Shown here piece after piece: positions 23,766 to 55,158 of a stretch of 64,000 nucleotides of DNA. Made by a program: the position numbers and the translations under genes. Numbering within the stretch: the stretch's first letter is position 1; each line of letters opens with the position of its first letter. The stretch lies in assembly GCA_010015655.1 (NCBI GenBank), contig ML976687.1, forward strand, positions 147,727-211,726, written 5' to 3'. The notes beneath the pieces were generated by a model. It had not been told where the DNA came from. It did no database searches and saw nothing but the letters and a program-made list of their open reading frames with translations. This DNA is from Bimuria novae-zelandiae CBS 107.79 (Eukaryota; Ascomycota; Dothideomycetes; Pleosporales; Didymosphaeriaceae).

Positions 23766-24516
23766 TATCCCCCGCATGGCCAAAATCTGCCATACACGGG
23801 CCACATTAAAATGGCCAATTAGGAGAGCGACTAGGTAAATACTAAATCTATATTATAATATTAGTAATTTTTATTTACTAGCTAAAATACGCCTATTTTA
23901 AAATTACCTACACTTATAAATATGCTAAAAGCTACTAGCCTACTTAGTAATAACTTTAACGTTATAAAATATATAAAATATAGTAAATTTAATGCTAAAA
24001 AGCCTAATTCGCTAGTAAATCTACTATTTAATTAAAACCCTCTTAACGTTAATAATTTACGTATTTTTAGAGAGGCTAACTTACCTAAAGGTATTAATTA
24101 TAGTAGTTTAATTAATTTATTTAATTTATACTTCTCTACTAACGTTATGAACTATATATTATATTATATAAATTAATATGCTAAGACGCTCTAAGTAGTA
24201 ACGCTTCGTAACTATTATAATTAAAAATTAATATCTTTAGTAAAGCTTTATACGTACTTTTTAACTATTATTTATATAGACGTCTACTAGGAGTCCTTAT
24301 TAGTAGAATACTAAGAGAAAGGTTACTAGAATACTCCTATATATAAAATTAATAAGTTTATATCCCGCTAGCGTTAGTAGCAGCTAGATTAGTATCTATA
24401 CTATACTAAGGTAGAGTAGAGCTTTTACTCCTTATTTAGCTACATTTAAAATTTCTCTTAGCTACTCTGCAAGCGCTTACTTTTATATTAAACGTTTAAT
24501 AAGTACCTTTATATTA

Positions 24517-24715
24517 ATAAAGTAATTACGAGATTTACTAAACGCGTGTTAAAAAAAAGTAATAATTAAAATAAAACTTATACCTAAGGGGTATAAGATT
24601 TAGTATCTAGTAAATAATAAAGTAATTACGAGATTTACTAAACGCGTGTTAAAAAAAGTAATAATTAACATAAAACTTATACTTAAGCGGTATAAGATTT
24701 AGTATATAGTAAATA
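24517..24715 (+). repeat. 100-bp tandem duplication inside the piggyBac-like element
   Basis: The unit beginning AAAGTAATTACGAGATTTAC occurs at 24517-24616 and 24617-24715 with few differences; a third start (AAAGTAATACTTAAC) follows at 24718. Both copies are AT-rich. Confidence 0.6.
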
Positions 24716-26037
24716 ATAAAGTAATACTTAACTAGCGTTTTTATATTTATAGTAAAGGACCTATTAATTTAATTAAAATTATTAACGCTAACGCTACTAG
24801 CAGGTCTTTAATTTTAATAAAGTTTATCTTTATTATCCTTATACTTACTAAGCATGCCGCTAGGGAAAGGCTTTTTCTAGCTAGCTATTATATTATCTAG
24901 AATAATAGCCTTTTTAATATAATACCTATACTTAAATATTTTAGATCTAAAGACGTCGGCTGCGCCAGGACTATTAAGATAATAAAGATAATAATAGAGA
25001 AGATTTATAAGCAGGCTATAAAAGTAGAATTCTAGATAAGTAGCGTACCTATTGCTTACAAAAGCTATCTAAAGAGCGCTTTAACAGTAGTCTTGTACGT
25101 CTTAAAACGCACGCTTAACAGTCCCTAAAGTAAGGAGAAATACGTTAGGCGCTATTAGCGTTAAAGAAAGTACTAAAAGTAGCCTAAAGAAATAATTAAG
25201 TTATTCTTTTTACTAGTATAGTTATAGATTATAAATATTAACGTTATTTTTTGAGTATAGTGTTAACTTTTATATAGCTACTTAGTATATTAAAAAGCTC
25301 TATTAACTCTCTAAATTAGTATTAAATAATAAAAAGATCTTTATACACGCCTTCAGTAATAATCTTATTTAGTTACTAAGGATCTTAATAATAGATAATT
25401 ATAATACTTATAAAAGTAATATTTATTAGTTTAATTAGTATAAAAGCTACTACTTTATTTAATAAGCTAAATAGTATATTTAACGTCCTTTACTTTACTT
25501 CTTACTTAATTTAGTACTAAATAACGCTTATAGGCTATTATTATACTTATCTTAGCTATTAGTAAAAGGGCGGGTTATAAAGACTTTTTATATACCTTAA
25601 TTAAGTAGCTTTTTAAGCGCGGAGGCCGACTTTGCAACGGTAGTATTAAACGTTAGCACGTAGACAATATGGTCAGCGACGCTGGCAGCTCCCACACGTC
25701 TACAAGGCTGTTTGCAGAGGCGAAGACTTGTATATCTTGTGCGACGTCTGGGCGTAAAAAGCACAACTCACGGCCTCCACGACAGCCTCTTACAACAACT
25801 TCTAGCAATCGTAAAGCTCCTCTGCGTACTCCGCGCAGTACTTTTAGCTATAGGGCGTGTAGGCTACCTTTGTGTAGGCTAGAGGAGCGTCCTAAGTGCT
25901 AGTAAGAATACTAGCAGCGCTATTAAATAATTATATTAAAAGATACCTCTTAAAACTTAATTATTAAGTAGTTTTATTAAAAAACTATAAAAAATTAGGC
26001 CTTTATATAAATCTATATATAAATTTAATCTCCTTTT

Positions 26038-43741: not shown

Positions 43742-44417
43742 TGCTGGAGCAGCGCTAGCAGCTCATGTACGCAGGCGATGGCCGTGCAGTGCTGGACATG
43801 GCACGCAGTTTCTTGCGGTTTCTTGCAGTTTCTTGCAGCGGGAGTCGAGGGAGACGGAAGACGGTGGGGTGCGGTGCAGTCAGGCTGATGCCCGGGGATC
43901 AGTCCGCGATGGATTCAGCTCGCTCAGGGCAGACTAAGCGGCGCGGGCGGATCGCAGCCGGGCGCGATGAACGGGAATCACGGCCTAGATTGTGGTGCAA
44001 TGGGCACGCAATTATGGGGGACTTGAGAGGCTCCTCACGGTGCGGAGAGCAAGCTGATGCGTCGCTGCGGGCCAGGTGAACAGCGCCGCGCTGTTCCAAG
44101 TGCCTGGGCTGCCAAGCTAGTGGATTAATTAGGTGCATATATCCTACATTCATACACACCACCATACACACCATACACACCACCATACACACCATACACA
44201 CCATACACACCATACACACCATACACACCATACACCATACACACCATACACACCATACACACCATACATACCATACACACCATACACACCATACACCATA
44301 CACACCATACACACCATACAGGCACGCGACTGCACTTCACGAGCGTCGTCAGCCGGGCGCATTGTCGTCTAATTGTTCATTGCGTGTATTGTTCTTGTAA
44401 TAATTTACTCTTTCACC
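43742..44417. promoter_or_regulatory. Bidirectional promoter region ArfGEF / ECM14
   Basis: The 676 bp between two divergent start codons must hold both promoters. It includes tandem TTTCTTGCRGTTTCTTGCAG repeats near 43809-43840 and the minisatellite at 44146-44320, which lies within 100 bp of the ECM14 start. Confidence 0.6.
44146..44320 (+). repeat. CACACCATA-type minisatellite
   Basis: About 175 bp consist almost only of ACACCAT/ACCATACAC units, with a period of mostly 9 bp and occasional 5-6-bp variants. One strand is purine-poor and G-free. Open frames across it (Tyr-Gly-Val-type repeats) are an effect of the repeat, not genes. Confidence 0.9.
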
Positions 44418-46123
44418 ATGCGCCAGCCGGCATTCACCGTGCTGAGCCTGCTGCTCCTCTGCCCATCCCTCATCGCCGCCGCCCCGCACGAGTCGCTGCG
44501 GTACGACGGCAAACCAAGCACAGGCAGCTACACCCCGCGCTCATGGCGGAGGCTCTCAGACGCAATAATTAGGAGGATATGGCGTCTTCCGGAGATGCAA
44601 AAGAGCTTGAGTACCGAGGAACCGGCAGTGAAAGGCCCCGGTCGCGACCTGCTGGCGCGTTATGGCAACGACCTGGTTTTGCGCTTCACCATCACCACCG
44701 CTGAGGAAGCATCAGCCCTCGCCGAGGCAGCAGATATACTCTTCCTAGACGTATGGGAATTCAATTCAGATTGGGTCGACATCAGGATAGCAAAGGACGT
44801 AGTATGTCTTCGTCCCTGCCCTAAATGGCTGCCTAGTTCACTCTCCAGGTCCCTTCCCTGCTCGGCCTCCTCCCACAATCGCTCCACACCGCACACGTGC
44901 CACTCATGCAAGATCTCGACCTTGCCCAAGCCGTCTTCTCTTCCTACCCCTCGCCCTCCGCTACCGAGTCCCACCATGACGACCATTCGTATACACCGAA
45001 TCTCCGACCCGCACCGCCGCCGGGGGGCAAAGGCCACCCCTTCTTCCAAGACTACCAACCACTCTCCGTAATAAAGCCTTGGATGAGTCTCATGGCCTCC
45101 ATGTTCACCACCCACGTGCGCCGCATCGATATCGGCGTCAGCTACCAAGGCCGAGACATCCCCGCTCTGCGCGTCGGCGTCCATCCCACCAACAGAGAAG
45201 CGACGCTTCTTCCTCGGAAGACGGTCTTGGTTGCCGGAGGCTCCCATGCCCGCGAATGGATATCCACTTCCACTGTAAATTACCTCGCCTGGACGCTCAT
45301 CAATTCCTACGGGAAAGACCGCGAAATCACCCGCCTGCTCGAACAATTCGATTTTGTCTTCGTCCCTACTCTCAACCCGGATGGCTATGTCTACAGCTGG
45401 GAGGTCGACCGCTTGTGGCGCAAGAATCGGCAACCCACTTCTCTCCGTTTCTGCAAAGGCGTCGATCTCGACCGCACCTACGACTTCCACTGGGAAGGCG
45501 ATGACAAGTCGACCAACCCGTGTTCCGAGTCTTTCCCCGGCGACACACCCTTCGGCGGCGTAGAGGCCAAACAGTTCACCGAATGGGCAAAAAATGAGAC
45601 CGAGCATGGCGTCGAATTCGTCAGTTTCATCGATCTGCACAGCTACAGCCAGCAGATCCTGTACCCATACAGCTACACATGCGACGCGGAACCGCCCTCC
45701 ATCGAAGACCTCGAAGAGCTCGCCATGGGTCTGGGCAAAGCGATCCGAACGTCCAGAAAGGGACACGCGTATAAAGTCACATCCGCCTGCGAGGGTAATG
45801 TCGCTCTTTCCAAGGACGGGAAGAAGGTCTTCCCGCGCATCGAATCCGCCGGTGGCAGTGCGTTGGATTGGTTCTACCACGAGCTGGGCGTGAAGTTTTC
45901 GTTTCAGATTAAGCTGCGCGACACTGGGTCTTATGGGTTTCTCCTGCCCAAGGATAATATTGTTCCTACCGGAGAGGAGATTCTGGATGCGGTGTTGTAT
46001 TTGGGGAGGTTTATGTTGGGTGAGGTGGGGATGTTGGGGAAGGCGCCTAATAGGGAGGAGGTTGTGCTGAGGAAAGCGGATGAAGTGGAGGGGGAAGAGG
46101 GAGAGGACCAGGTTGAGCTTTGA
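44418..46123 (+). CDS. ECM14: Inactive zinc-carboxypeptidase homologue Ecm14
   Basis: Exons 44418-44801 and 44849-46123 (47-bp intron, GTATGT donor) encode 552 residues. The N-terminus [21 protein letters not shown] is a signal peptide; an inhibitory propeptide-like domain precedes the M14 domain. Zinc ligands are intact: H261 and E264 in GGSHAREW, H392 in DLHSYSQQ. The general base is not: where active enzymes have Glu before LRDTG, this protein has Lys483 ([16 protein letters not shown]). That substitution is characteristic of Ecm14, a secretory-pathway pseudo-peptidase linked to cell-wall biology in yeast. The last 30 residues are acidic. The start at 44418 was chosen for the signal peptide. 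Confidence 0.92.
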
Positions 46124-46401
46124 GCGCTTTTATAATATGTGTTTGGAGGGCGGGAATGAGGACTTTCGTTTGTATTGATACCACGCCGATTTTGTTGCAA
46201 TACAGGCATATAGCAATGGGTTTTTTCTCAAGACACGCGTGCTTGGTTTTTTTTTTTTTTTTCTGTTGCGTGGTGTGATGGCGCTGGTGGATTAGCTGGG
46301 AGAACGCTCACACATGTGCCCGTAAACAGCGCACCGGCCAGACGCCGGATCCGGATCCGATTCCTAGGGTCATCTCAAGAGCCTCCAGCACCACCGCCGT
46401 C
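46124..46401. other. ECM14 3' region with long T run
   Basis: A run of 18 T, preceded by TTGG, lies at about 46245-46262. Further right is GGATCCGGATCCG near 46349-46359. No gene seen. Confidence 0.5.
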
Positions 46402-46480
46402 TATATAACCCCCTCCGCTTCCCTCTCTGTCTTCCTCTCCTCACGCAACTCCCCGAGCTTTCGATGGCGGGGACTAAAAA
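46402..46480 (+). promoter_or_regulatory. Array module 1: TATA box, CT-rich tract, GACTAAAAA
   Basis: TATATAACC at 46402, CT-rich stretch with CTTCCTCTCCTCACGCAACT, then GGGGACTAAAAA; 70 bp from TATA to GACT. Confidence 0.6.
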
Positions 46481-46736
46481 GCGCATCACATGTGACCCAT
46501 GTGCGGTCTATAAAAAGTTGACCCGCCCGTACATGGAGACGTGTGGGAGAGTGGTGGGACTAAAAAACACGTAGAGTCACAACATAGCGTGTGGACCTGG
46601 AGCGGGGACAAAAAAAAAAGAGCACCGCGAGGGTGAATGTGTGGTGCGGAGAGAAGAGCTGGGGGGACTTAAAAAGAAAAGAGAGATGTCTTTGATGGGG
46701 AGAGCAGTGGGAATAAAAACGCACGTTCATCCCTTT

Positions 46737-47250
46737 ATGGGTCTGCTGCGCTGGCCTTGCCGCGGTCATGGAGTGCTTTTGATGGGGAGAAAGTTTGCGA
46801 CATCCTGGTGCGGAGGGCCAGTGACGGGGGATAAAAAAAAAACCGAGTCGAGCAGTTCCATGGAGAGAGTACTAGGGATCGAAAGGACCTGCGTTGCTCG
46901 TGATGGGTGCTCCGCTTGAACCTTGTCGCAGTCATGGGGGGAAGGGGTGGGGGATTAAAAAATAAGGTCCAGCCCGTTCATGTAGAGAGACACTGGGAAG
47001 GAAAACACACGCTCATTCCCTGATGGGTGCTGCGCTGGCCTTGCCGCGGTCATGGAGCCCCTTTGGTGGGAAGGAAATCTGCGATATCACCGGCGCGGAG
47101 GGCTGGTGACGGGGGATTAACAACCAAGTCAAACGAATTATGGAGAGAGCACTGGGGAACAAAAACACACGTTGATCCCCTCATGGGTCGCTGCGCTCTT
47201 CCGCAGTCATGGAGTCCCTTTGATGGGGACAAAGTCCGTGATGTCCACCA
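46737..47250 (+). repeat. Four copies of a roughly 120-165 bp unit inside the array
   Basis: ATGGGT(G)CTGCGCTGGCC, CGC(G/A)GTCATGG and a GGGGGATTAAA-type box recur in order at about 46737, 46899, 47023 and 47180. Copies 1 and 3 are the most alike over more than 100 bp. Confidence 0.7.
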
Positions 47251-47331
47251 ACATCCAATGTTGCACATACGTGTGACATGTGCCTCGTCGAGCGGACGTG
47301 CGTAATCTCAACCCCTTGAGCACGGCGTGGT

Positions 47332-47404
47332 GTATAAAGCACACTCTTTTCTAGCTGTTAGATTCTTCCTTTACAACACTTCTAACCTAACGGGCTGACT
47401 AAAA
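47332..47404 (+). promoter_or_regulatory. Array module 2
   Basis: GTATAAAGC at 47332, CT-rich tract, CTAAC at about 47382, GACTAAAA at 47397 (65 bp). Confidence 0.55.
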
Positions 47405-47851
47405 TTATGCAAGAAGCCAGCCATGTACTGTCTAAAACCGACGATGAAACGTTGGATAAGGTGGGTTGAAAGCAGTGTCACGGTGATCCATGTGCTGGCT
47501 CAAAACTAACGGCAAAAGGTTCATGGAGGCGGGAGAGTGGAAGACTAAAAAACGACGGGCAGGCTGCATGTGCTGTCTCAAAAGCATTGTCACAGTGGCC
47601 TATGTGCTATCTTAAAATCGGCGGTGTTGTCTTGCATGGAGCTGGGAGACTGGCGGACTAAAAAAAACCCGTCAGATTGGTGTCATGGGTGTGAGAGACT
47701 GGGGACTAGAAGTATTGCTGACCATGGTATATGTAAGACGTTCTTTCGGCGTGCTAGAACACATTGACTTCGAAGGCACGCGTTGAGGCAGTGCTGCGAT
47801 GGCGGTGGCGTCCATCATCACCACGCAGTAATATTCCAGGCGCCCCCGCGC

Positions 47852-47932
47852 ATATATAAACCCTCTGGAAGAGCGAGCTTGAAGTTTTCTTCTTCACACA
47901 ACTCCTCGCTTTCGTAGGTGGGGACTAAAAAA
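47852..47932 (+). promoter_or_regulatory. Array module 3
   Basis: ATATATAAACC at 47852, CTTCTTCACACAACTCCTC at about 47889-47907, GGGGACTAAAAAA at 47921 (about 70 bp). This is the best-preserved module together with module 1. Confidence 0.65.
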
Positions 47933-48253
47933 GAGACGCGGAAGATCGAATGCGGTGTCCAACAAAATGCATTGGAACCATACCATGGGTTCGTGGAGGG
48001 CCTCGGGGCACTAAAAGAGAACCAGATTAATGTCATGTGTGCTATGGAGGCTGGAGTGTGCGAAAGAACAAAATCGCTCAAATTGCTCTCCATATGTGGT
48101 GCGGCGGCGGAGAGCGTAGGGCTAAAATTTCGACGCAGGAAGTGTTATGTGTGGAACTGAGGGATCGGCGCACAATCATGATTGACGGTCCTGTGGACGG
48201 CAGGAAACGTGGTAATTACGCTTCATCACTGGACTGTCATGTGACTATACGGC

Positions 48254-48326
48254 GTATAAATCTCCCTCACTTTGCGTGGGTGTTGTTGCTTCTCCACACA
48301 ATCTCCTACACCAGCGGGAATTAAAA
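48254..48326 (+). promoter_or_regulatory. Array module 4
   Basis: GTATAAATC at 48254, TTGCTTCTCCACACAATCTCC, then the variant GGGAATTAAAAAG at 48316. Confidence 0.55.
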
Positions 48327-48603
48327 AGGGCGCGAATGATATGCATGTGCCGTCTAAAATCTAGACCAGATCTGGGCCATGTGGTGCGTTCGGCTGGACT
48401 GAGACCTAATTCATGTGGGCGTGGAATTATGTCTGTCGCGTTGGAAGAGTGACTAAAATAAACCGCCCCCGATTTCGATGTGCGAGGGGAGATGTGTGCG
48501 GTAGGGCTTAAAATCATAAAATGCAGCATGATTTCGGGATGGGCGCCCAGCGAGTTCAAGCCAGAACTTCATCATCGAATAGTGGTGAAGATGCGGAGAA
48601 AAT

Positions 48604-48680
48604 GGTATATTAACAGCTTATTTCTCGCGTGGTTGAACTTCCTTCTTCACATGACAGACCTCGACGGAGGTGACTAAAAA
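48604..48680 (+). promoter_or_regulatory. Array module 5
   Basis: GTATATTAA at 48604, CTTCCTTCTTCACATGACAG, GGTGACTAAAAA with GACT at 48672. Confidence 0.55.
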
Positions 48681-48889
48681 TGACAATGGAGTGCCATATG
48701 TGCCGTTTAAAAAGGACTGTACCAAGCGCCTATGGCGCTGCGGAGCGTGGGACTAAAAATAAACAAGCGAGTTTGATGTGCCTGTGTGGGATCTGGAACT
48801 AAAACACCAGGGCAGAATCAATGCGTGCAGCGGAGACGGATCTGGTCGTAGAGACACAAGATGATCACGGCAAGAAGGATGGATTAAAA

Positions 48890-49660
48890 GCAGTAGCTGT
48901 GAGATCAATAGGCGTGCTATCTGATAAAGGTACCTCCCATGACTCACGATCATTCCAAATTTTATCAGGTATCTGGTTCAGAAAGGACTATTAGGGATTG
49001 CAGAATTTGATGAAGTAGCGCTTCTCTTTATTCAAATGACGGTCTCCATCATCAATCAGTGATGGCAAGTTCGATCCAAGCTGCCGAATACGACCATTGT
49101 CTATACAAAACTCTCAGGAGAAAATGTAATAGCGGGGGATTCGAGCTGAAAACCGGCCATTATATCACCCATCTGGGGGCACCGGCTCTTGACTCTGTGT
49201 CTTGCGATTGACGTTCACCCTAACTCGGGTTCGGGTAGCGTCCCTTCCAAATCGTAGCGTCGGATTTCTAACGTGGGCGCGTTATTGTTGAGCTCCGCTG
49301 GGTGGGGTAGCGTACCGAAGAAGCAGTCGAAACGGTGTAGAGGGTGCAGACACGTTGCGTGAATCATGGTAGTTAAGGTCGATATGCCGAAGCTGACAGT
49401 TGGAAGGCCCTGGGGTGATGGACGGGTAAGCACACTGTTACTGATAGTGGCCCTTCCGGATTATGATGGCATTATGAGCAAGCGCGACAGGGCGCCTTCT
49501 CGACCCTGTCACACTTCCAGCTTCTATCTGAAACTTCTCCCGCTATTCTAAATATTAGAGACACAGTTTGCATACGCCACGCCCAAGGAAGCAATGATAC
49601 GAAAGTACAATTGGTAGCTCATCACGTGATATGCCCTACGCTAGGAAAGGATTACATCAA
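48890..49660. other. Motif-poor gap in the array
   Basis: About 770 bp without GACTAAAA. A 72-codon minus-strand frame at 49215-49433 shows no recognisable family. It may be inserted or older single-copy DNA. Confidence 0.4.
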
Positions 49661-49703
49661 CAAAAGCGACTAAAACCCTTGAGTTTGGCTCACATGATTC
49701 AAA

Positions 49704-49776
49704 TCTATACAAGTTCCTCTGTTTTAATAGCTTCTCCCTCCACAGACCAGCGGCCTCCGGAAACGGACTAAAAAAG
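49704..49776 (+). promoter_or_regulatory. Array module 6
   Basis: TCTATACAAG (weak TATA) at 49703, CTTCTCCCTCCACAGACCAG, GGACTAAAAAA with GACT at 49766. Confidence 0.45.
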
Positions 49777-50315
49777 ACTGCTATGCACAGTTCATGGAGT
49801 GTCTAAAAAGAATTCTCGCCCTCACAAATGCGGAGAAGCGGACAGGGAACTTTAAAGTATGCATGAACACGTATGTTTTAGCGGAGATACCAAAAACCGA
49901 GTAGAGAGGGACAATGCGTTCACGTTACGCCCGTTGGACGTTCATATATCAGTCACCAACTGCTCGGCCAGAGTTAACTTACACTTCATCGCTCTGCGAG
50001 GCGGGACTAAAAACAACTGGACCGGAATTCCTATGGCGCGTGCACAAAGAAGTGAAACCATAACAAATGGAGAAGAAGAGCGGAGATCCAAAACGACAAA
50101 GAGATGAACTTATGCTCTGCGGAAGAAGCTTGCCCAAGTTCTTGAAAAATGTTCCATTTCAATCCCATGTTGACTCTTTGGAAGGACCAATAGAAAGCGA
50201 ACATCAGAGAACGGTCCGCGGTCGAACTTCATCAAAGTCTACGGTATGGAACAACATGTCCACGAACTATCTCAAGACTCTCAAGCTTCGCAAGTGTTTG
50301 GCAAATGCGTCGAGC

Positions 50316-50402
50316 TAGATATTCGCTTGCAGTCTAAATCCTCGCCTGTCCTCGCTCTTCCTGCTTCTTCACAGCACTACCATTGAGAGGGTGACTAAAA
50401 AG
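50316..50402 (+). promoter_or_regulatory. Array module 7
   Basis: Only a weak AT box near 50316, but a clear CTTCCTGCTTCTTCACAGCAC tract and GGGTGACTAAAAA with GACT at 50393. Confidence 0.4.
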
Positions 50403-50613
50403 AATCCAGGCTTGCTACATGAGGACCCTGCAAAAATGTTCCGCAATACAGACTTGTGGGAGGTCTAAAACGCAAGAGCGAGGCCTATCACGTGCTGTGT
50501 GAAGCCTGGAGTCTCAAATTCGTCACCCTCGGATACATGTCCCTTGCTTCCTCGAGCGGAAAATATAAAAAAAATAGTCACGCCAGTGGTATGCGGGGAA
50601 GGCTGGCGACTTT

Positions 50614-50684
50614 GCTATAAAGAATTCTTGAATGTTCTTATGTTCTCGTCTCGCGCTGCGCACCCGGGGAAGTAGACTAAAAAT
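50614..50684 (+). promoter_or_regulatory. Array module 8
   Basis: GCTATAAAG at 50614, CT-containing tract, AGTAGACTAAAAAT with GACT at 50675 (about 60 bp). Confidence 0.5.
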
Positions 50685-50956
50685 GTATTGGCGAAGCCTG
50701 CATGTTGTTTTCGAAACTACGTGTAACCAGTTACATGCCGAAAGACCTGAAAAAGTTGTGATTCCAAAAAATCAAACAATTATGCGCGTCATGCACTCCG
50801 GTCGGAGAACTAGAGAGGGTTAAAAATCTTCATTCGAAGCAGCAATATTTTCTGCTTGGGGGTGCTTCAAAACGCCCGTCGAGTGGAACGTAGCCCTCTA
50901 TTGAAGAGACGCTGGTTCAGGTCGGAAACTACACAGTTCGCAAACATGTCTCTTTT

Positions 50957-51795
50957 TGTAGCCACGTGACTGACGTCAGAGGTGGTATACATGGAAGGTG
51001 CTACCTGGGTGCACGGACTACTGAGTCAACAGACTCTCCCCCGCTCTCTCTCTCTCTGCTCAACAGCAGACTCCTCACTCAACAGCAGACTCCTCACTCA
51101 ACAGCAGACTCCTCACTCAACAGCAGACTCCTCACTCAACAGCAGACTCCTCACTCAACAGCAGACTCCTCACTCAACAGCAGACTCCTCACTCAACAGC
51201 AGATTCCTCACTCAACAGCAGATTCCTCACTCAACACACTCTTTTCTACAGATAGCAATACAGCTTGTTGTCCTCACCTGCCTGCCCGCCCACAGATGTT
51301 CCCGAGGGAGCGCACTGGGCCACGGCCATGAATCGCAAAATGTTCTTTTTTTGGGCCCCGCAACAGAGTTCATGCTGCTACTACTGCGCTGATTTTGGAG
51401 TCCCATTGCTTGTCTGGAAATGGACTGAGTTCTCCCTCGGAAAAGACACCCCTGACCCGTAGTATTGGTTGACGGAGCTTGGTAATACTCCCGGAGAGCG
51501 GTTTGGGTAGGTAGATTGGCGGGACACATGCGATTAAGCACGCTGCCAGACTCTTCCAAGCATGCTATTACTGTCCGTAAATTTTGGAAGCTCCAGGAAA
51601 AAGTGTAAGCAGGCAGGCAGGCAGATCAGGACAATAATAAGCTTTATTGCTATCTGCAGAAAAGAGTGTGTTGAGTGAGGAGTCTGCTGAGAGGAGAGAG
51701 AGCACGGGGAGAGCTTTTGTTGAGTCCCTAGTCCGTGCACCCAGGTAGCACCTTCCATGTATACCACCTCTGACGTCAGTCATGTGGCTACAACA
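50957..51795. repeat. Inverted repeat with TGACGTCA box and central spacer
   Basis: The left arm (about 50957-51290) and the right arm (about 51795-51590 read on the minus strand) share GTGACTGACGTCAGAGG (one mismatch), GGTATACATGGAAGGTGCTA and CTGGGTGCACGGACTA. They also share ACTCAACACACTCTTTTCT followed by CAGATAGCAATA, and a CTGCCTGCC tract. Outside the expanded 19-bp repeat of the left arm, identity is about 85-90% by eye. The spacer is about 300 bp. The two arms would be convergent copies of one unit beginning at the palindromic TGACGTCA (a CRE/bZIP-type site) and resembling an intron 3' end at TTTTCTACAG. No coding potential is shared beyond a short frame beginning MVYMEGATWVHG. Confidence 0.8.
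51061..51231 (+). repeat. 19-bp minisatellite, nine units
   Basis: Nine head-to-tail copies of CAACAGCAGACTCCTCACT; the last two carry GATTCC for GACTCC. The homologous place in the right arm of the inverted repeat has a single unit, so the array expanded after the arms formed. Confidence 0.95.
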
Positions 51796-51849
51796 TCTCA
51801 ACTTAATATGCAGCCGCCGTATGCCCGGCGTGACTGCTTCCCCGAGCGT

Positions 51850-51922
51850 ATATAAATTCCCTCCCTCGTTCCACTCGCCTCTCTTCTTCACGACACAGCA
51901 CTTCGGCGAGGGTGACTAAAAA
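51850..51922 (+). promoter_or_regulatory. Array module 9
   Basis: GTATATAAATTCC at 51849, CTCTCTTCTTCACGACACAGCA, GGGTGACTAAAAAC with GACT at 51914 (about 64 bp). Confidence 0.6.
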
Positions 51923-52119
51923 CTAGCGGCACCTGCAAACATGGGGTCTAAATCTTTTGCAGAAGTTCTTTATGCGTGCTTTTCGGTTCTGGCTCTTTGA
52001 AGAAAAATTGCTCTTTATTTTGTTTCATGGGCCTTCTGGAGTCGAGCGTGCGCCAAAAACCGCTGGAAAGCTCCGTGATACAGAGTAGCTGGGCGGTTTC
52101 AAAACTAGAAACTGTGAGA

Positions 52120-52720
52120 TAAAGGAGAAATGGAGACGCGAGTGCGCCAGAAAATAACGTCTGGCCAGTTTACGAAAAGAGAGTGAAGAGGACTAAGAAG
52201 GTGTGCGCATTGTTGATTATGGGCGTTGGAGAGACGTGTCTGCATCAAAACCCTCGAAGAAGCAATGCCATGGAGACGGAGTGGGGTAGTCCAAAATCTA
52301 CTAGAAGCATAGTATGTGTGGAGACGTGCTCTTAACAAAACTACCAAGTGTCGCCGCGAATGGGGACAGAGTGGGGGTGTGAAAGAAAAGCAAAGCACTA
52401 TATGACATGGGCGTTGGGAGACGTGCCTGCCACAAAAAGTGGAACGATAAATACATGGAGTTGCCGTGTGTAGATGGAAAAACATTAAACAGCATCGGCA
52501 TGTGCGTTGGGAGACGTTTCTGCAAAATACTATTGATTATGACGAACGCATGGAGACGCAGCAGGGAGGTCCAAGAACGTTGATCTACCGTATCATGCGC
52601 GCTGAGAGACACTTCTGCAACAAAAGTGTAAATAGCACGACGCATGAGAGCAAAGTGCGGAAGTCCAAAAACAACTGGGCTCAATCGGCATGAACTCTGC
52701 GTGAGCAAAGTGCTCCAATA
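52120..52720 (+). repeat. GGAGACG sub-repeat of the array
   Basis: ATGGAGACG and GTTGGGAGACGTG(T/C)CTGC boxes alternate about every 45-50 bp (52131, 52226, 52270, 52319, 52411, 52507, 52550 and weaker further), each followed by a C-AAAA box such as GTCCAAAA. It appears to be a diverged branch of the same alternating two-part repeat. Confidence 0.6.
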
Positions 52721-53046
52721 CTTCCGGCTGCCCTCGAATGACGCGCATCCTCTTGTCTTCCAAACCTTCATCTCTAAGAAAGTATGCAGGGAGCGCGCTG
52801 TTGGGCGTGCACTAAACCGATACCATCACTGTTCATGAAGTGAGGGATCGCGTGGTTCTAAAAACATGTCCCGATCGATGCTATGTGGCCAGGCCCAAAA
52901 TCTGCAACGAGAATTACATGAAGGAGAGGGTGAGAAGTCCAAAACGAAGGAACGCCCAATCGATGTGTCGTGTGCGCGAGCAGAGTACTGAAATAACCCC
53001 GAGACCGCGTTATAGAAAGGGGAAGGCGGGGAGGGGTGACTAAAAG

Positions 53047-53643
53047 ATCAGCTGTGTCAAGTCATGCGCTCGTTCTCGGGTCTCGAACAGTGTTGTTGAT
53101 GAAATCTGTGAAGTCGAAAGAAGAGTGTTGAGGCAATCGTTGTTTTGATTGAGAAGCTACTCTATAGAGCTATATACTGTGGATCACGTGGATCACGTGC
53201 ACGGGCCGCACGTACGCGGGTGGCCCAAGCTTCTATACTGAACCGTCACAAAATCAAAAGGACTCGCCATCCTGGGCATGTCGGGAAAGAGAGACCCGGC
53301 ACGGAGGGGCAAGAACGGCAGAAAAACTAATGTCGGAGTAACAAAAAATAATGAGGAAGTTGCACAGAAGGGTGCTGCAGGTGAATCAAAGCCAATGTTG
53401 ACCTGCTGATGTGCGGAGAGAGTTTGGAGTGAGGTGTCAAAACCGTTATCGACGAATATCATGTGTGAACGGGCCTCGAAGAGGATGAATAGTAAAGTGC
53501 GGGTGCGTGAGGGTGTCTCACCATGTGCCACTACACGGTGATGCTCTTCGTCACCAGTTCTCGGGGAGGTGTGTGAATACTTGTATCCTATACTCGCCTG
53601 TATTATCCACACCCTAGAGACGTGCTCATTTGTGCACGTTTTC
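53047..53643. other. Intergenic between array and TCD gene
   Basis: No gene recognised; GGATCACGTGGATCACGTG, a double E-box-like motif, lies at about 53182-53200. Confidence 0.45.
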
Positions 53644-55158
53644 TCACCTAAATCGCTCGTATTTCTCCTCTTCGGCCATCTTCTTCTCCACTGTCTCCGC
53701 AATCTTTGCACCCCACAAATCTTCAGGTGTTTTATCGCCCTTCAATACTTCCTTCTCATGCTTCATCACTTCCTCCTTCGTCATACAGACCAGCTCTTTC
53801 ATCTTGAGGGAAGTGTTATTCTGCCCCGGTGTCCGCTTATCGATGAAGAAGCCCGTCTTGGGCTTCTCCCACCTGACCAGGGCCAACCGGGTCGATAGTC
53901 CACTGATGATACTGCGGCCGTTGTACACCTCTTCGACCAAATACCCTACATCATCTTTCGTGATGGGGATCTTCAGACCCTCTGCGTTGAAACCAAAGTC
54001 CTTGGCGATACGTGCTTCGGAACCTTGAAGCGAACCGAGAATGCCGTCGTACATACTGTCGCGGTTCTTGGAGGGGAGGTACTCCTGCGGATAACCTGAG
54101 ATGGAGAGGATGACGTGGTTTGCGACTGCGAGACCAAAGATTGCGGGCATGGTGCCGAGCACTGGTAAGATTCTCACACGGAAATCGGGTAGGACGCCGA
54201 GTTCGCCGACGTCGCCTTTCTTGAACTCTTCCTCATTCAGTGGTAATAGTTGAGCTTTTCCGGGACCAGGCTTCTCGGTCGAAAATACCACGGGAATGCC
54301 CTCTTTCACGCCAAGGGCGCGGAGACGGCGGCGCGTGGATTTCGACAGAGGGTCGTCAGTGGATGCGGAGATGTCGCCGATGAAGATTCGCGTAGGATCT
54401 GATTTGCATCCCGCGCCCATGGAGGAGATTACTGGAATGTTGTTCTTGTGGCAGTAGTTCAGCAGCGCAACTTTGCTGTCGATGTTGTCGATGGCATCGA
54501 TAACATATGTTGGCGCCTGCCCGTTGGCATCGGGCGCGAGTTGAGTCGCCGCACTAGACTCGCTGAACAGCTCATTACGGCAGTCGAAGTGCGTCCAGGG
54601 AGTGATTTGCTCGAGACGCCGGCGGAGGCAGTGCACTTTCGGAGTGCCTACATCTGCCAGCGTTGCTACCGCGTGCCGGTTCAGAGAAGAGAGAGTGACC
54701 TGGTCGAAGTCGATGAGGCGGAGATTGGAACATCCCGAGCGTGCCAAAGCAGCTGTTGCGTGAGAGCCCACACCACCACAGCCAACGACTATGATAAATG
54801 CTGAGCGGAGTTTAACCAGCCCTTCGTCAGTGAGGAAGGCGCGGTTCCGGGCCAGTTGTTCGAGGATCAAGTCATCGTCGTAGTCTCCTTTCCGTGCTCT
54901 TGCGGCAAGTTCCATGCTTTTCTTGTCTTCTTTACTTGGGGCGGAAATTTCGGATGCAGCGCCATATTCTGTCAATCTGGTCGCGTGGTGCTCCGAATCA
55001 ACATCCGGTATTGATGCTTTCAGTTCTTCAACTCTGTACATTCGCCTCGCCTTCTGGAAGCCTAATATCGCGCTTCCCACCACCGCGCCTGACACCACGG
55101 CCGTCGTAATCAATTGCGCATTGCGATTCTCGGTAGCCCGAGATATCCACGAGGACAT
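53644..55158 (-). CDS. TCD: tRNA threonylcarbamoyladenosine dehydratase (Tcd1/Tcd2-like)
   Basis: A single 504-codon exon. An N-terminal membrane segment (LITTAVVSGAVVGSAILGF, residues 16-34) fits the mitochondrial location of yeast Tcd1 and Tcd2. The E1-like ThiF/TcdA domain follows: nucleotide-binding motif GCGGVGS at 126-132, RLIDFDQVTLSSLNRHAVA, DAIDNIDSKVALLNYC and MGAGCKSDPTRI. The enzyme uses ATP to cyclise t6A at position 37 of ANN-decoding tRNAs to ct6A. Length and domain order agree with fungal orthologues; which of the two yeast paralogues it matches cannot be decided here. It shares a 410-bp upstream region with NUC1. Confidence 0.9.
   Translation of the reverse strand: MSSWISRATENRNAQLITTAVVSGAVVGSAILGFQKARRMYRVEELKASIPDVDSEHHATRLTEYGAASEISAPSKEDKKSMELAARARKGDYDDDLILEQLARNRAFLTDEGLVKLRSAFIIVVGCGGVGSHATAALARSGCSNLRLIDFDQVTLSSLNRHAVATLADVGTPKVHCLRRRLEQITPWTHFDCRNELFSESSAATQLAPDANGQAPTYVIDAIDNIDSKVALLNYCHKNNIPVISSMGAGCKSDPTRIFIGDISASTDDPLSKSTRRRLRALGVKEGIPVVFSTEKPGPGKAQLLPLNEEEFKKGDVGELGVLPDFRVRILPVLGTMPAIFGLAVANHVILSISGYPQEYLPSKNRDSMYDGILGSLQGSEARIAKDFGFNAEGLKIPITKDDVGYLVEEVYNGRSIISGLSTRLALVRWEKPKTGFFIDKRTPGQNNTSLKMKELVCMTKEEVMKHEKEVLKGDKTPEDLWGAKIAETVEKKMAEEEKYERFR

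What the first reader, a model, noticed from the sequence alone, without database searches (positions are those of the whole stretch)
46402..53046. Sixteen same-strand GACTAAAA octamers in a 6.6-kb gene-free array
An 8-mer should occur about 0.1 times per strand in 6.6 kb by chance; 16 exact copies, all on the + strand, plus many one-base variants, cannot be random. In dense parts two motif types alternate every 40-60 bp. I know of no fungal transposon, satellite or RNA family with this form. The strand bias suggests the motif acts in a transcript, or is the fossil of a directional tandem repeat.
Basis: partly seen in the sequence, partly recalled or inferred. Interest (0 to 1): 0.8.

Follow-up and report, generated by a model that had tools for sequence, protein, structure and literature searches.

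The report
Fungal arrays of spacers between boxes
A soil fungus carries many promoter-led arrays in which a unique 18-19-letter spacer sits between two fixed short signals, CTAAAA and ATG; they look like an undescribed family of repeat-spacer RNA genes, perhaps a store of guide RNAs.

Summary
The window comes from Bimuria novae-zelandiae (Pleosporales). The array at 46.4-53.07 kb is not a plain decayed satellite: the box G(A/T)CTAAAA is mostly followed 18-19 nt later by ATG. In the window 48 of 77 A-runs show this spacing (shuffles 3.6, maximum 9 of 500). Sub-arrays begin with a TATA box, a TTCTTCACA-like start region and the first box, on the array's strand. The same architecture occurs at many places in the 77.4-Mb genome; I estimate 2,000-2,500 units. 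They are not ORFs, and Rfam has no credible match. My best explanation: Pol II-transcribed noncoding RNA arrays that work like guide libraries. That they are guides is inferred: two spacers tested have no second genomic match, and no partner protein is proven. Chief rival: protein-binding arrays with neutral linkers. GGGGACTAAAA resembles the Cas13a repeat, but no Cas13a gene was found and the spacer length is wrong.

The parts
46402..46470 (+). promoter/leader 1: TATATAA, CCTCACGCAA, CCCC...GGGG then first GACTAAAA
46470..47185 (+). sub-array 1: box-spacer-ATG units, including related copies of a larger block at about 46720-47240
   Evidence: (by eye)
47333..47395 (+). promoter/leader 2 (TATAAA ... 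TTACA ... GACTAAAA)
47395..47638 (+). sub-array 2, short and long connectors alternate (by eye)
47852..47921 (+). promoter/leader 3 (TATATAAA ... TTCTTCACACA ... GGGGACTAAAA), with CATCATCACC upstream
47921..48149 (+). sub-array 3
48255..48317 (+). promoter/leader 4 (TATAAAT ... TCCACACA ... GGGAATTAAAA)
   Evidence: not found by the strict pattern
48317..48541 (+). sub-array 4
48606..48670 (+). promoter/leader 5 (TATATTAA ... TTCTTCACA ... GGTGACTAAAA)
48670..48778 (+). sub-array 5
49666..49696 (+). isolated unit GCGACTAAAA-spacer-ATG
49702..49764 (+). promoter/leader 6 (weak TATA, TCCACAGA, GGACTAAAA)
   Evidence: only
49764..49916 (+). sub-array 6
49944..50003 (+). promoter/leader 7
50003..50258 (+). 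sub-array 7
50326..50391 (+). promoter/leader 8 (poor TATA, TTCTTCACAGCA, GGTGACTAAAA)
50391..50593 (+). sub-array 8
50616..50673 (+). promoter/leader 9 (TATAAAG ... TAGACTAAAA)
   Evidence: only
50673..50737 (+). sub-array 9, with an inserted foldback element downstream
51849..51912 (+). promoter/leader 10 (TATATAAA ... TTCTTCACGA ... GGTGACTAAAA)
51912..53066 (+). sub-array 10; in its later part two connector types alternate by eye (ATGGGCGTTGGGAGACG...CACAAAA and ATGGAGACG...TCCAAAA)
50956..51793 (.). inserted foldback/MITE-like element (87-nt arms, 91% complementary, 19-bp tandem repeat inside), with related copies elsewhere in the genome; not part of the system

Best explanation
A genome-wide family of noncoding RNA genes. 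Each sub-array has a Pol II-type promoter (in about half a GTGATG...CATCAC palindrome upstream, then TATA, then a TTCTTCACA-like start region). It is read as one RNA that carries a series of units: CUAAAA, an 18-19 nt unique spacer, AUG, a G-rich connector, then the next CUAAAA. Proteins recognise the two boxes at a fixed distance and present or cut out the spacer, which acts as a guide. Shown from sequence: architecture, spacing, strand, promoter order, spread through the genome, spacer uniqueness in the loci read. Inferred: transcription, processing, box-binding proteins, guide function, targets.
For: Spacing: 48 of 77 A-runs in the window against 3.6 in shuffles; 122 of 142 G(A/T)CTAAAA boxes followed by ATG at 22-27 nt; CTAAAAN{18,19}ATG 1768 genome-wide against 930 for N{28,29} (the tool's reversed patterns gave 1010 and 1285). 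Promoter plus first unit: 82 matches, 0 for the reversed pattern (by eye 7 of the 82 are copies of two repeats). Spacers: position-wise information about 0.01-0.06 bit over most of their length; 482 of 482 distinct; identity within arrays 0.521, between arrays 0.523 (235 units, pairs with connectors of like length); composition A .257 C .266 G .234 T .242 against connectors A .153 C .228 G .34 T .279. Upstream palindrome in 16 of 30 promoters, shuffles 1.0, maximum 4 of 300 (consensus chosen from these promoters). First box in the 5' leader often follows a short stem: 65 leaders, stem 4.77 against 4.40 +- 0.12 with swapped arms. RNAi parts exist in the genome: Piwi at about 12 loci, RdRP at 4.
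Against: No RNA data. 2 of 2 spacers searched with up to 2 mismatches in the whole genome match only themselves, so near-perfect genomic targets are not seen. 482 spacers show no clear excess of 12- to 15-mer matches in 303 kb of local DNA. Connectors as a whole do not fold better than controls, so no precursor hairpin. The leader stem is not significant with 31 leaders. No constant partner gene seen, though only 10 flank ORFs from 10 loci were examined besides the window. Spacers could be neutral linkers: balanced composition is what neutral DNA could give. No relatives could be searched.
Confidence: 0.45

Rival explanations
1. Scaffold or sponge RNA: one protein, or a pair, binds CUAAAA and AUG at a fixed distance; the 18-19 nt between them is a neutral linker whose length, not sequence, matters.
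For: Spacers have almost no consensus and balanced composition, show no local excess or (2 of 2) second genomic match; both boxes and their distance are strictly kept.
Against: Does not by itself explain why spacers of units with similar connectors in one array share little beyond chance (58 within-array pairs with connector identity at least 0.7: spacer 0.544; 162 between-array pairs: 0.523), though fast drift could; 2,000 or more units is a lot for a sponge.
Confidence: 0.3
2. DNA-level arrays of a bipartite binding site (CTAAAA-N18-ATG), for chromatin or replication.
For: Fixed distance of a little over two helical turns; directional repeats.
Against: Sub-arrays start at a TATA/TTCTTCACA promoter on the same strand at a narrow range of distances; connector strand asymmetry, spacer A-T above connector A-T in 17 of 18 arrays, suggests RNA.
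Confidence: 0.1
3. Tandem poly(A) signals: an A-rich hexamer, about 18 nt, a YA cleavage site, then G/U-rich sequence, repeated downstream of promoters to end transcription early.
For: Order and distances resemble a polyadenylation site (recalled); connectors are G/T-rich; the base before ATG is C or T in about 73%.
Against: Cleavage sites need no UG (recalled), yet full ATG is kept in 122 of 142 boxes; no reason for dozens in a row.
Confidence: 0.07
4. Decayed satellite or mobile element whose spacers simply diverged.
For: Some units are duplicates: L120 spacers GAACAGATCCGCGATTTG and GCACGGATCCGCGATTTT, and the 46.72-47.24 kb block (by eye). Connectors are somewhat alike within arrays, 0.575 against 0.529.
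Against: Decay would blur boxes and spacing as fast as spacers; 46380-50940 has no BLAST-level paralogue in the genome beyond one dispersed repeat (for the rest of the array the search was swamped by repeats); recurrent promoters.
Confidence: 0.05

Closest known systems
CRISPR arrays, type VI-A (Cas13a)
   Same: Unique spacers in a directional array behind a leader; GGGGACTAAAA(C) just before the spacer; some leaders here form a stem before ACTAAAA. The Cas13a crRNA ccaccccaatatcgaaggggactaaaac-spacer was seen in the oligo table passage of PMC6315463.
   Different: No Cas13a found in the genome; repeats not identical; connectors as a whole do not fold; spacer 18-19 nt, not about 28; conserved ATG after the spacer; eukaryote with Pol II-type promoters.
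Nematode 21U piRNA genes (recalled)
   Same: Thousands of units with a short motif at a fixed distance from a unique sequence of about 20 nt.
   Different: Here units are packed in arrays behind shared TATA promoters; motif and spacing differ.
Box C/D snoRNA clusters (recalled)
   Same: Two boxes around a variable stretch, polycistronic RNA.
   Different: No RUGAUGA or CUGA boxes in the unit consensus; variable stretch lies after the box, not before D; Rfam gives only a subthreshold SNORD75 match (18.1 against 50 bits).
Fungal milRNA / disiRNA loci (recalled)
   Same: Possible small RNA source in a genome with Argonautes and RdRPs.
   Different: No hairpin precursors; regular boxes and spacers are not a feature of those loci (recalled).
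17 conserved structural RNAs in fungi (PMC8216456; start of abstract and one passage seen)
   Same: Fungal noncoding RNA catalogue.
   Different: That screen looks for covarying structure; 'tandem', 'Pleosporales' and 'Dothideomycetes' do not occur in its main text.

Membership tests
CRISPR type VI-A | Cas13a effector gene | tested here: not met
   NF038188 in own genome: 0 matches; control rings in 1 of 14 genomes, Bacteroides ihuae
CRISPR type VI-A | near-identical direct repeats within an array | tested here: not met
   mean connector identity within arrays 0.575
CRISPR type VI-A | stem-loop in every repeat | tested here: not met
   connector energies not better than swapped arms; a slight excess of stems of 4 bp or more, 0.62 against 0.548 +- 0.032; leaders weakly
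CRISPR type VI-A | GACUAAAAC handle before the spacer | tested here: inconclusive
   G(A/T)CTAAAA before spacers, Cas13a repeat seen; the following C is not conserved here (33%)
CRISPR (any) | unique spacers of fixed length | tested here: met
   482 of 482 distinct; 18-19 nt from CTAAAA to ATG in most
CRISPR (any) | spacers match invaders | tested here: inconclusive
   own genome only, 2 spacers, no second match; virus targets not tested
Box C/D snoRNA | C and D boxes, Rfam-detectable | tested here: not met
Hairpin microRNA/milRNA | precursor hairpin | tested here: not met
   (units only; whole transcripts were not folded)
Micro-ORF genes | ATG-to-stop frame kept between ATG and the TAA of CTAAAA | tested here: not met
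   84 connectors ending CTAAAA: frames 27, 29, 28; base -3 of ATG is A in 16%
Satellite / minisatellite | whole unit conserved at constant period | tested here: not met
   Tandem Repeats Finder reports no box-spacer unit in the array; connector length 13-64 within the limits I set
Argonaute-bound small RNAs | 20-24 nt RNAs with defined ends | not testable with these tools
   no RNA-seq

The most novel reading that the evidence does not exclude
A eukaryotic, CRISPR-like library: some 2,000-2,500 unique spacers in promoter-led RNA arrays, cut out between CUAAAA and AUG and loaded into an effector (perhaps one of the dozen Argonaute-like proteins) to recognise foreign or self RNA, with spacers that turn over faster than the boxes.
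Probability: 0.25. Interest if true: 0.97.

Novelty: categorically new. Interest (0 to 1): 0.86.

Why it matters
No eukaryotic system of regular unique spacers between fixed boxes behind dedicated promoters is known to me, and, judged by titles and starts of abstracts, my paper searches (open-access library only) listed none. If the spacers are guides, a fungus has an unknown RNA-guided pathway with thousands of guides. If they are linkers, there is still an unknown, abundant RNA-gene-like family with a strict two-box code. Both are testable with one stranded RNA-seq experiment.

Tried and rejected
Protein coding: in 84 connectors ending CTAAAA the TAA falls in the three frames 27, 29 and 28 times; no Kozak context; 10 of 17 ORFs in the region against Pfam, no match. 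Known RNA family: Rfam at E up to 5 gives two subthreshold matches. Dispersed repeats: only inserted ones match elsewhere (one search scored 40 of 536 candidates). Connector hairpins: energies no, a slight stem excess. Leader hairpin: with 31 leaders not above swapped arms, with 65 leaders z about 3 by stem and -2.4 to -3.2 by energy; the 65 are those left of 82 after I dropped 7 repeat copies, 2 overlapping and 8 that by eye lacked a clear leader, so the z may be flattered. Alternating short and long connectors: visible by eye in the window and L069, not significant over all arrays (lag-1 r -0.09). Spacer pairing with neighbouring spacers or connectors: none. Spacers as coding-like sequence: weak sense-coding tilt in 3-mers, not decisive. 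Genome search with 22 joined spacers: no match, not even to themselves, so uninformative. Viral contigs: 48 stretches match the pattern, 0 of 48 show the array signature. Cas13a: none. The palindrome count contained an indexing error for two promoters; one search replaces it. rRNA as target: search not answered. Argonaute next to an array: one case on C31 of 5 Piwi loci looked at, four of them with little flank; not significant. Counts include L014, which overlaps L063, so some units count twice there; L014 was left out from then on.
Full report
Identity and setting. The window is G000:C32:147727-211726 of a 77.4-Mb genome in 191 contigs. The ORF left of the array (44897-46123, zinc carboxypeptidase) is 100% identical over 92% of its length to BU23DRAFT_590106 of Bimuria novae-zelandiae CBS 107.79; many named relatives are annotated ECM14. 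Right of the array lies a ThiF-family gene (53644-55158, -), then a DNA/RNA non-specific endonuclease and a NOC3p/CBF gene. Nothing in Rfam is credible.

The observation. 16 GACTAAAA on +, 0 on -; shuffles give 0.2. The real signal is a two-box unit. Measured from the end of an A-run, ATG lies 17, 18 or 19 nt away in 20, 19 and 9 of 84 runs, against 0-5 at every other distance up to 59. Measured from the first C of CTAAAA, over a first set of loci, ATG is at 24 or 25 nt in 118 of 169. With run lengths 4, 5 and 6 the mean distance from the first A is 22.3, 22.8 and 22.5 (runs of 7 and 8, 4 cases, give 24 and 25), so the distance is set mainly from the CT side. Shuffles of the window array give 3.6 units on average, at most 9 in 500, against 48 seen; so about 4 of 48 may be chance, and more among the looser calls with only three As.

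Promoters. Ten leaders in the window align: TATA, then TTCTTCACA or like, then G(T)GACTAAAA-N18-ATG, some with a poor TATA. A strict script finds 34 such leaders in the array loci (6 of the 10 in the window), 31 kept. The box pattern starts 53-74 nt after TATA and 19-44 nt after TCAC or TTAC in those kept. Upstream, a palindrome near GTGATG...CATCAC scores at least 10 of 12 in 16 of 30 promoters (shuffles 1.0, maximum 4 of 300; 3.3% of random stretches of the window) and at least 11 in 8 of 30 (shuffles 0.08; 0 of 4000 random stretches). The consensus was read off these same promoters. So the arrays look like a co-regulated set of Pol II genes. That they are transcribed is inferred.

Genome-wide. 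The pattern TCAC-N-GACTAAAA-N16-20-ATG has 82 matches and its reversed form none. Of the 20 loci fetched from it, L068 and L070 overlap others; of the 18 distinct, 16 are arrays by the spacing signature and 2 (L052, L061) are not. The signature also showed in L014 (the same array as L063), L027 and L032, fetched for other reasons, and in the four larger regions L120-L123, which were chosen because they held matches. One strand dominates in 20 of 21 loci; L064 carries units on both. CTAAAAN{18,19}ATG occurs 1768 times, CTAAAAN{28,29}ATG 930 times; the tool's reversed patterns gave 1010 and 1285. The excess is about 840 against the longer spacing, about 760 against the reversed pattern. In the arrays 165 of 482 called units have that exact form, so 2,000-2,500 units in all. 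This is an estimate. The listed places reach only into contig C2: C1 (2.5 Mb) shows no obvious cluster, C2 several, so arrays are unevenly spread. GACTAAAA itself: 2751 against 1295 for the reversed word.

Spacers and connectors. 482 units from 21 loci, all spacers distinct. Spacer positions carry about 0.01-0.06 bit except the bases next to ATG (C or T in about 73% at the last) and the first base, which cannot be A by definition. Spacer identity is the same within and between arrays; connectors are a little more alike within. Spacer composition is balanced, connectors are G-rich and A-poor. Where a box keeps G(A/T)CTAAAA but lacks ATG (20 of 142), 9 of 20 have a one-letter variant of ATG at offset 19 (8 of 20 at offset 24, otherwise 1-5). 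This is what selection on boxes and none, or diversifying selection, on spacers would leave.

What it does. Guides are my first choice because two recognition boxes hold a unique stretch of constant length, in RNA-gene-like arrays. The weak points are told plainly: 2 of 2 spacers have no second match with up to 2 mismatches in the genome; no clear local excess (15-mers 2, against 0 for shuffled spacers and one 17-mer for reversed ones); no hairpin precursor in the units; no constant neighbour gene among 10 flank ORFs from 10 loci, of which four match a family over its cut-off (Sec20, TCP1 chaperonin, tubulin-tyrosine ligase, PALP/CBS), one weakly and five none. If guides, targets are foreign, imperfect or lost. 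Piwi-domain similarity lies at about 12 loci (19 matched stretches): full Argonautes on C9 and C99, low-scoring ones on C124 and C42, others with in-frame stops in the matched stretch, which may be decay or introns. RdRP similarity lies at 4 loci. Whether 12 is many for this order I could not test. One Piwi gene on C31 lies within about 3 kb of an array; 4 other Piwi loci, read with short flanks, show none.

Resemblance to Cas13a. The Cas13a crRNA repeat ends ...ggggactaaaac before its spacer (passage of PMC6315463; 13 papers hold that string). The window's first leader reads CTCCCCGAGCTTTCGATGGCGGGGACTAAAA. The likeness is striking, but the effector was not found, connectors are neither identical nor, as a whole, hairpins, and the spacer is shorter. 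I treat it as a coincidence or convergence.

Literature. Of 8 searches, six bore on novelty. I saw search listings (titles and starts of abstracts), and passages of two papers. Judged by those, none describes such arrays. The library is open-access PMC only.

Noticed in passing
window 50956-51793: Foldback/MITE-like element inserted in the array: 87-nt inverted arms (91%), internal 54-nt arms, about nine copies of a 19-bp repeat CTCAACAGCAGACTCCTCA; related copies among the 40 scored candidates.
   Followed up: partly
window 53103-53255: Dispersed repeat of about 145 bp, at least 23 other copies at 91-98% identity in the capped list, contains GTGGATCACGTGGATCACGTG.
   Followed up: no
window 49250-49329: Third dispersed repeat of about 80 bp, 12 other copies at 78-90%.
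   Followed up: no
window 44160-44320: Tandem array of CACCATACA, 18 copies, about 0.6 kb upstream of the carboxypeptidase ORF.
   Followed up: no
window 24515-24725: 99-bp tandem repeat, 2.1 copies at 95%, in an AT-rich stretch; the window alternates AT-rich (25-33% GC) and gene-rich blocks.
   Followed up: no
G000 C31, C94, C98, C124, C42, C9, C99: About 12 loci with Piwi-domain similarity, six on C31, several with stops inside the matched stretch (introns not excluded).
   Followed up: partly
L126 3200-4010: Array units and promoters within about 3 kb of a Piwi gene on C31, with an ORF for a hAT dimerisation region nearby.
   Followed up: partly
L064: The one locus of 21 with array units on both strands (16 of 27 and 7 of 11 A-runs).
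   Followed up: no
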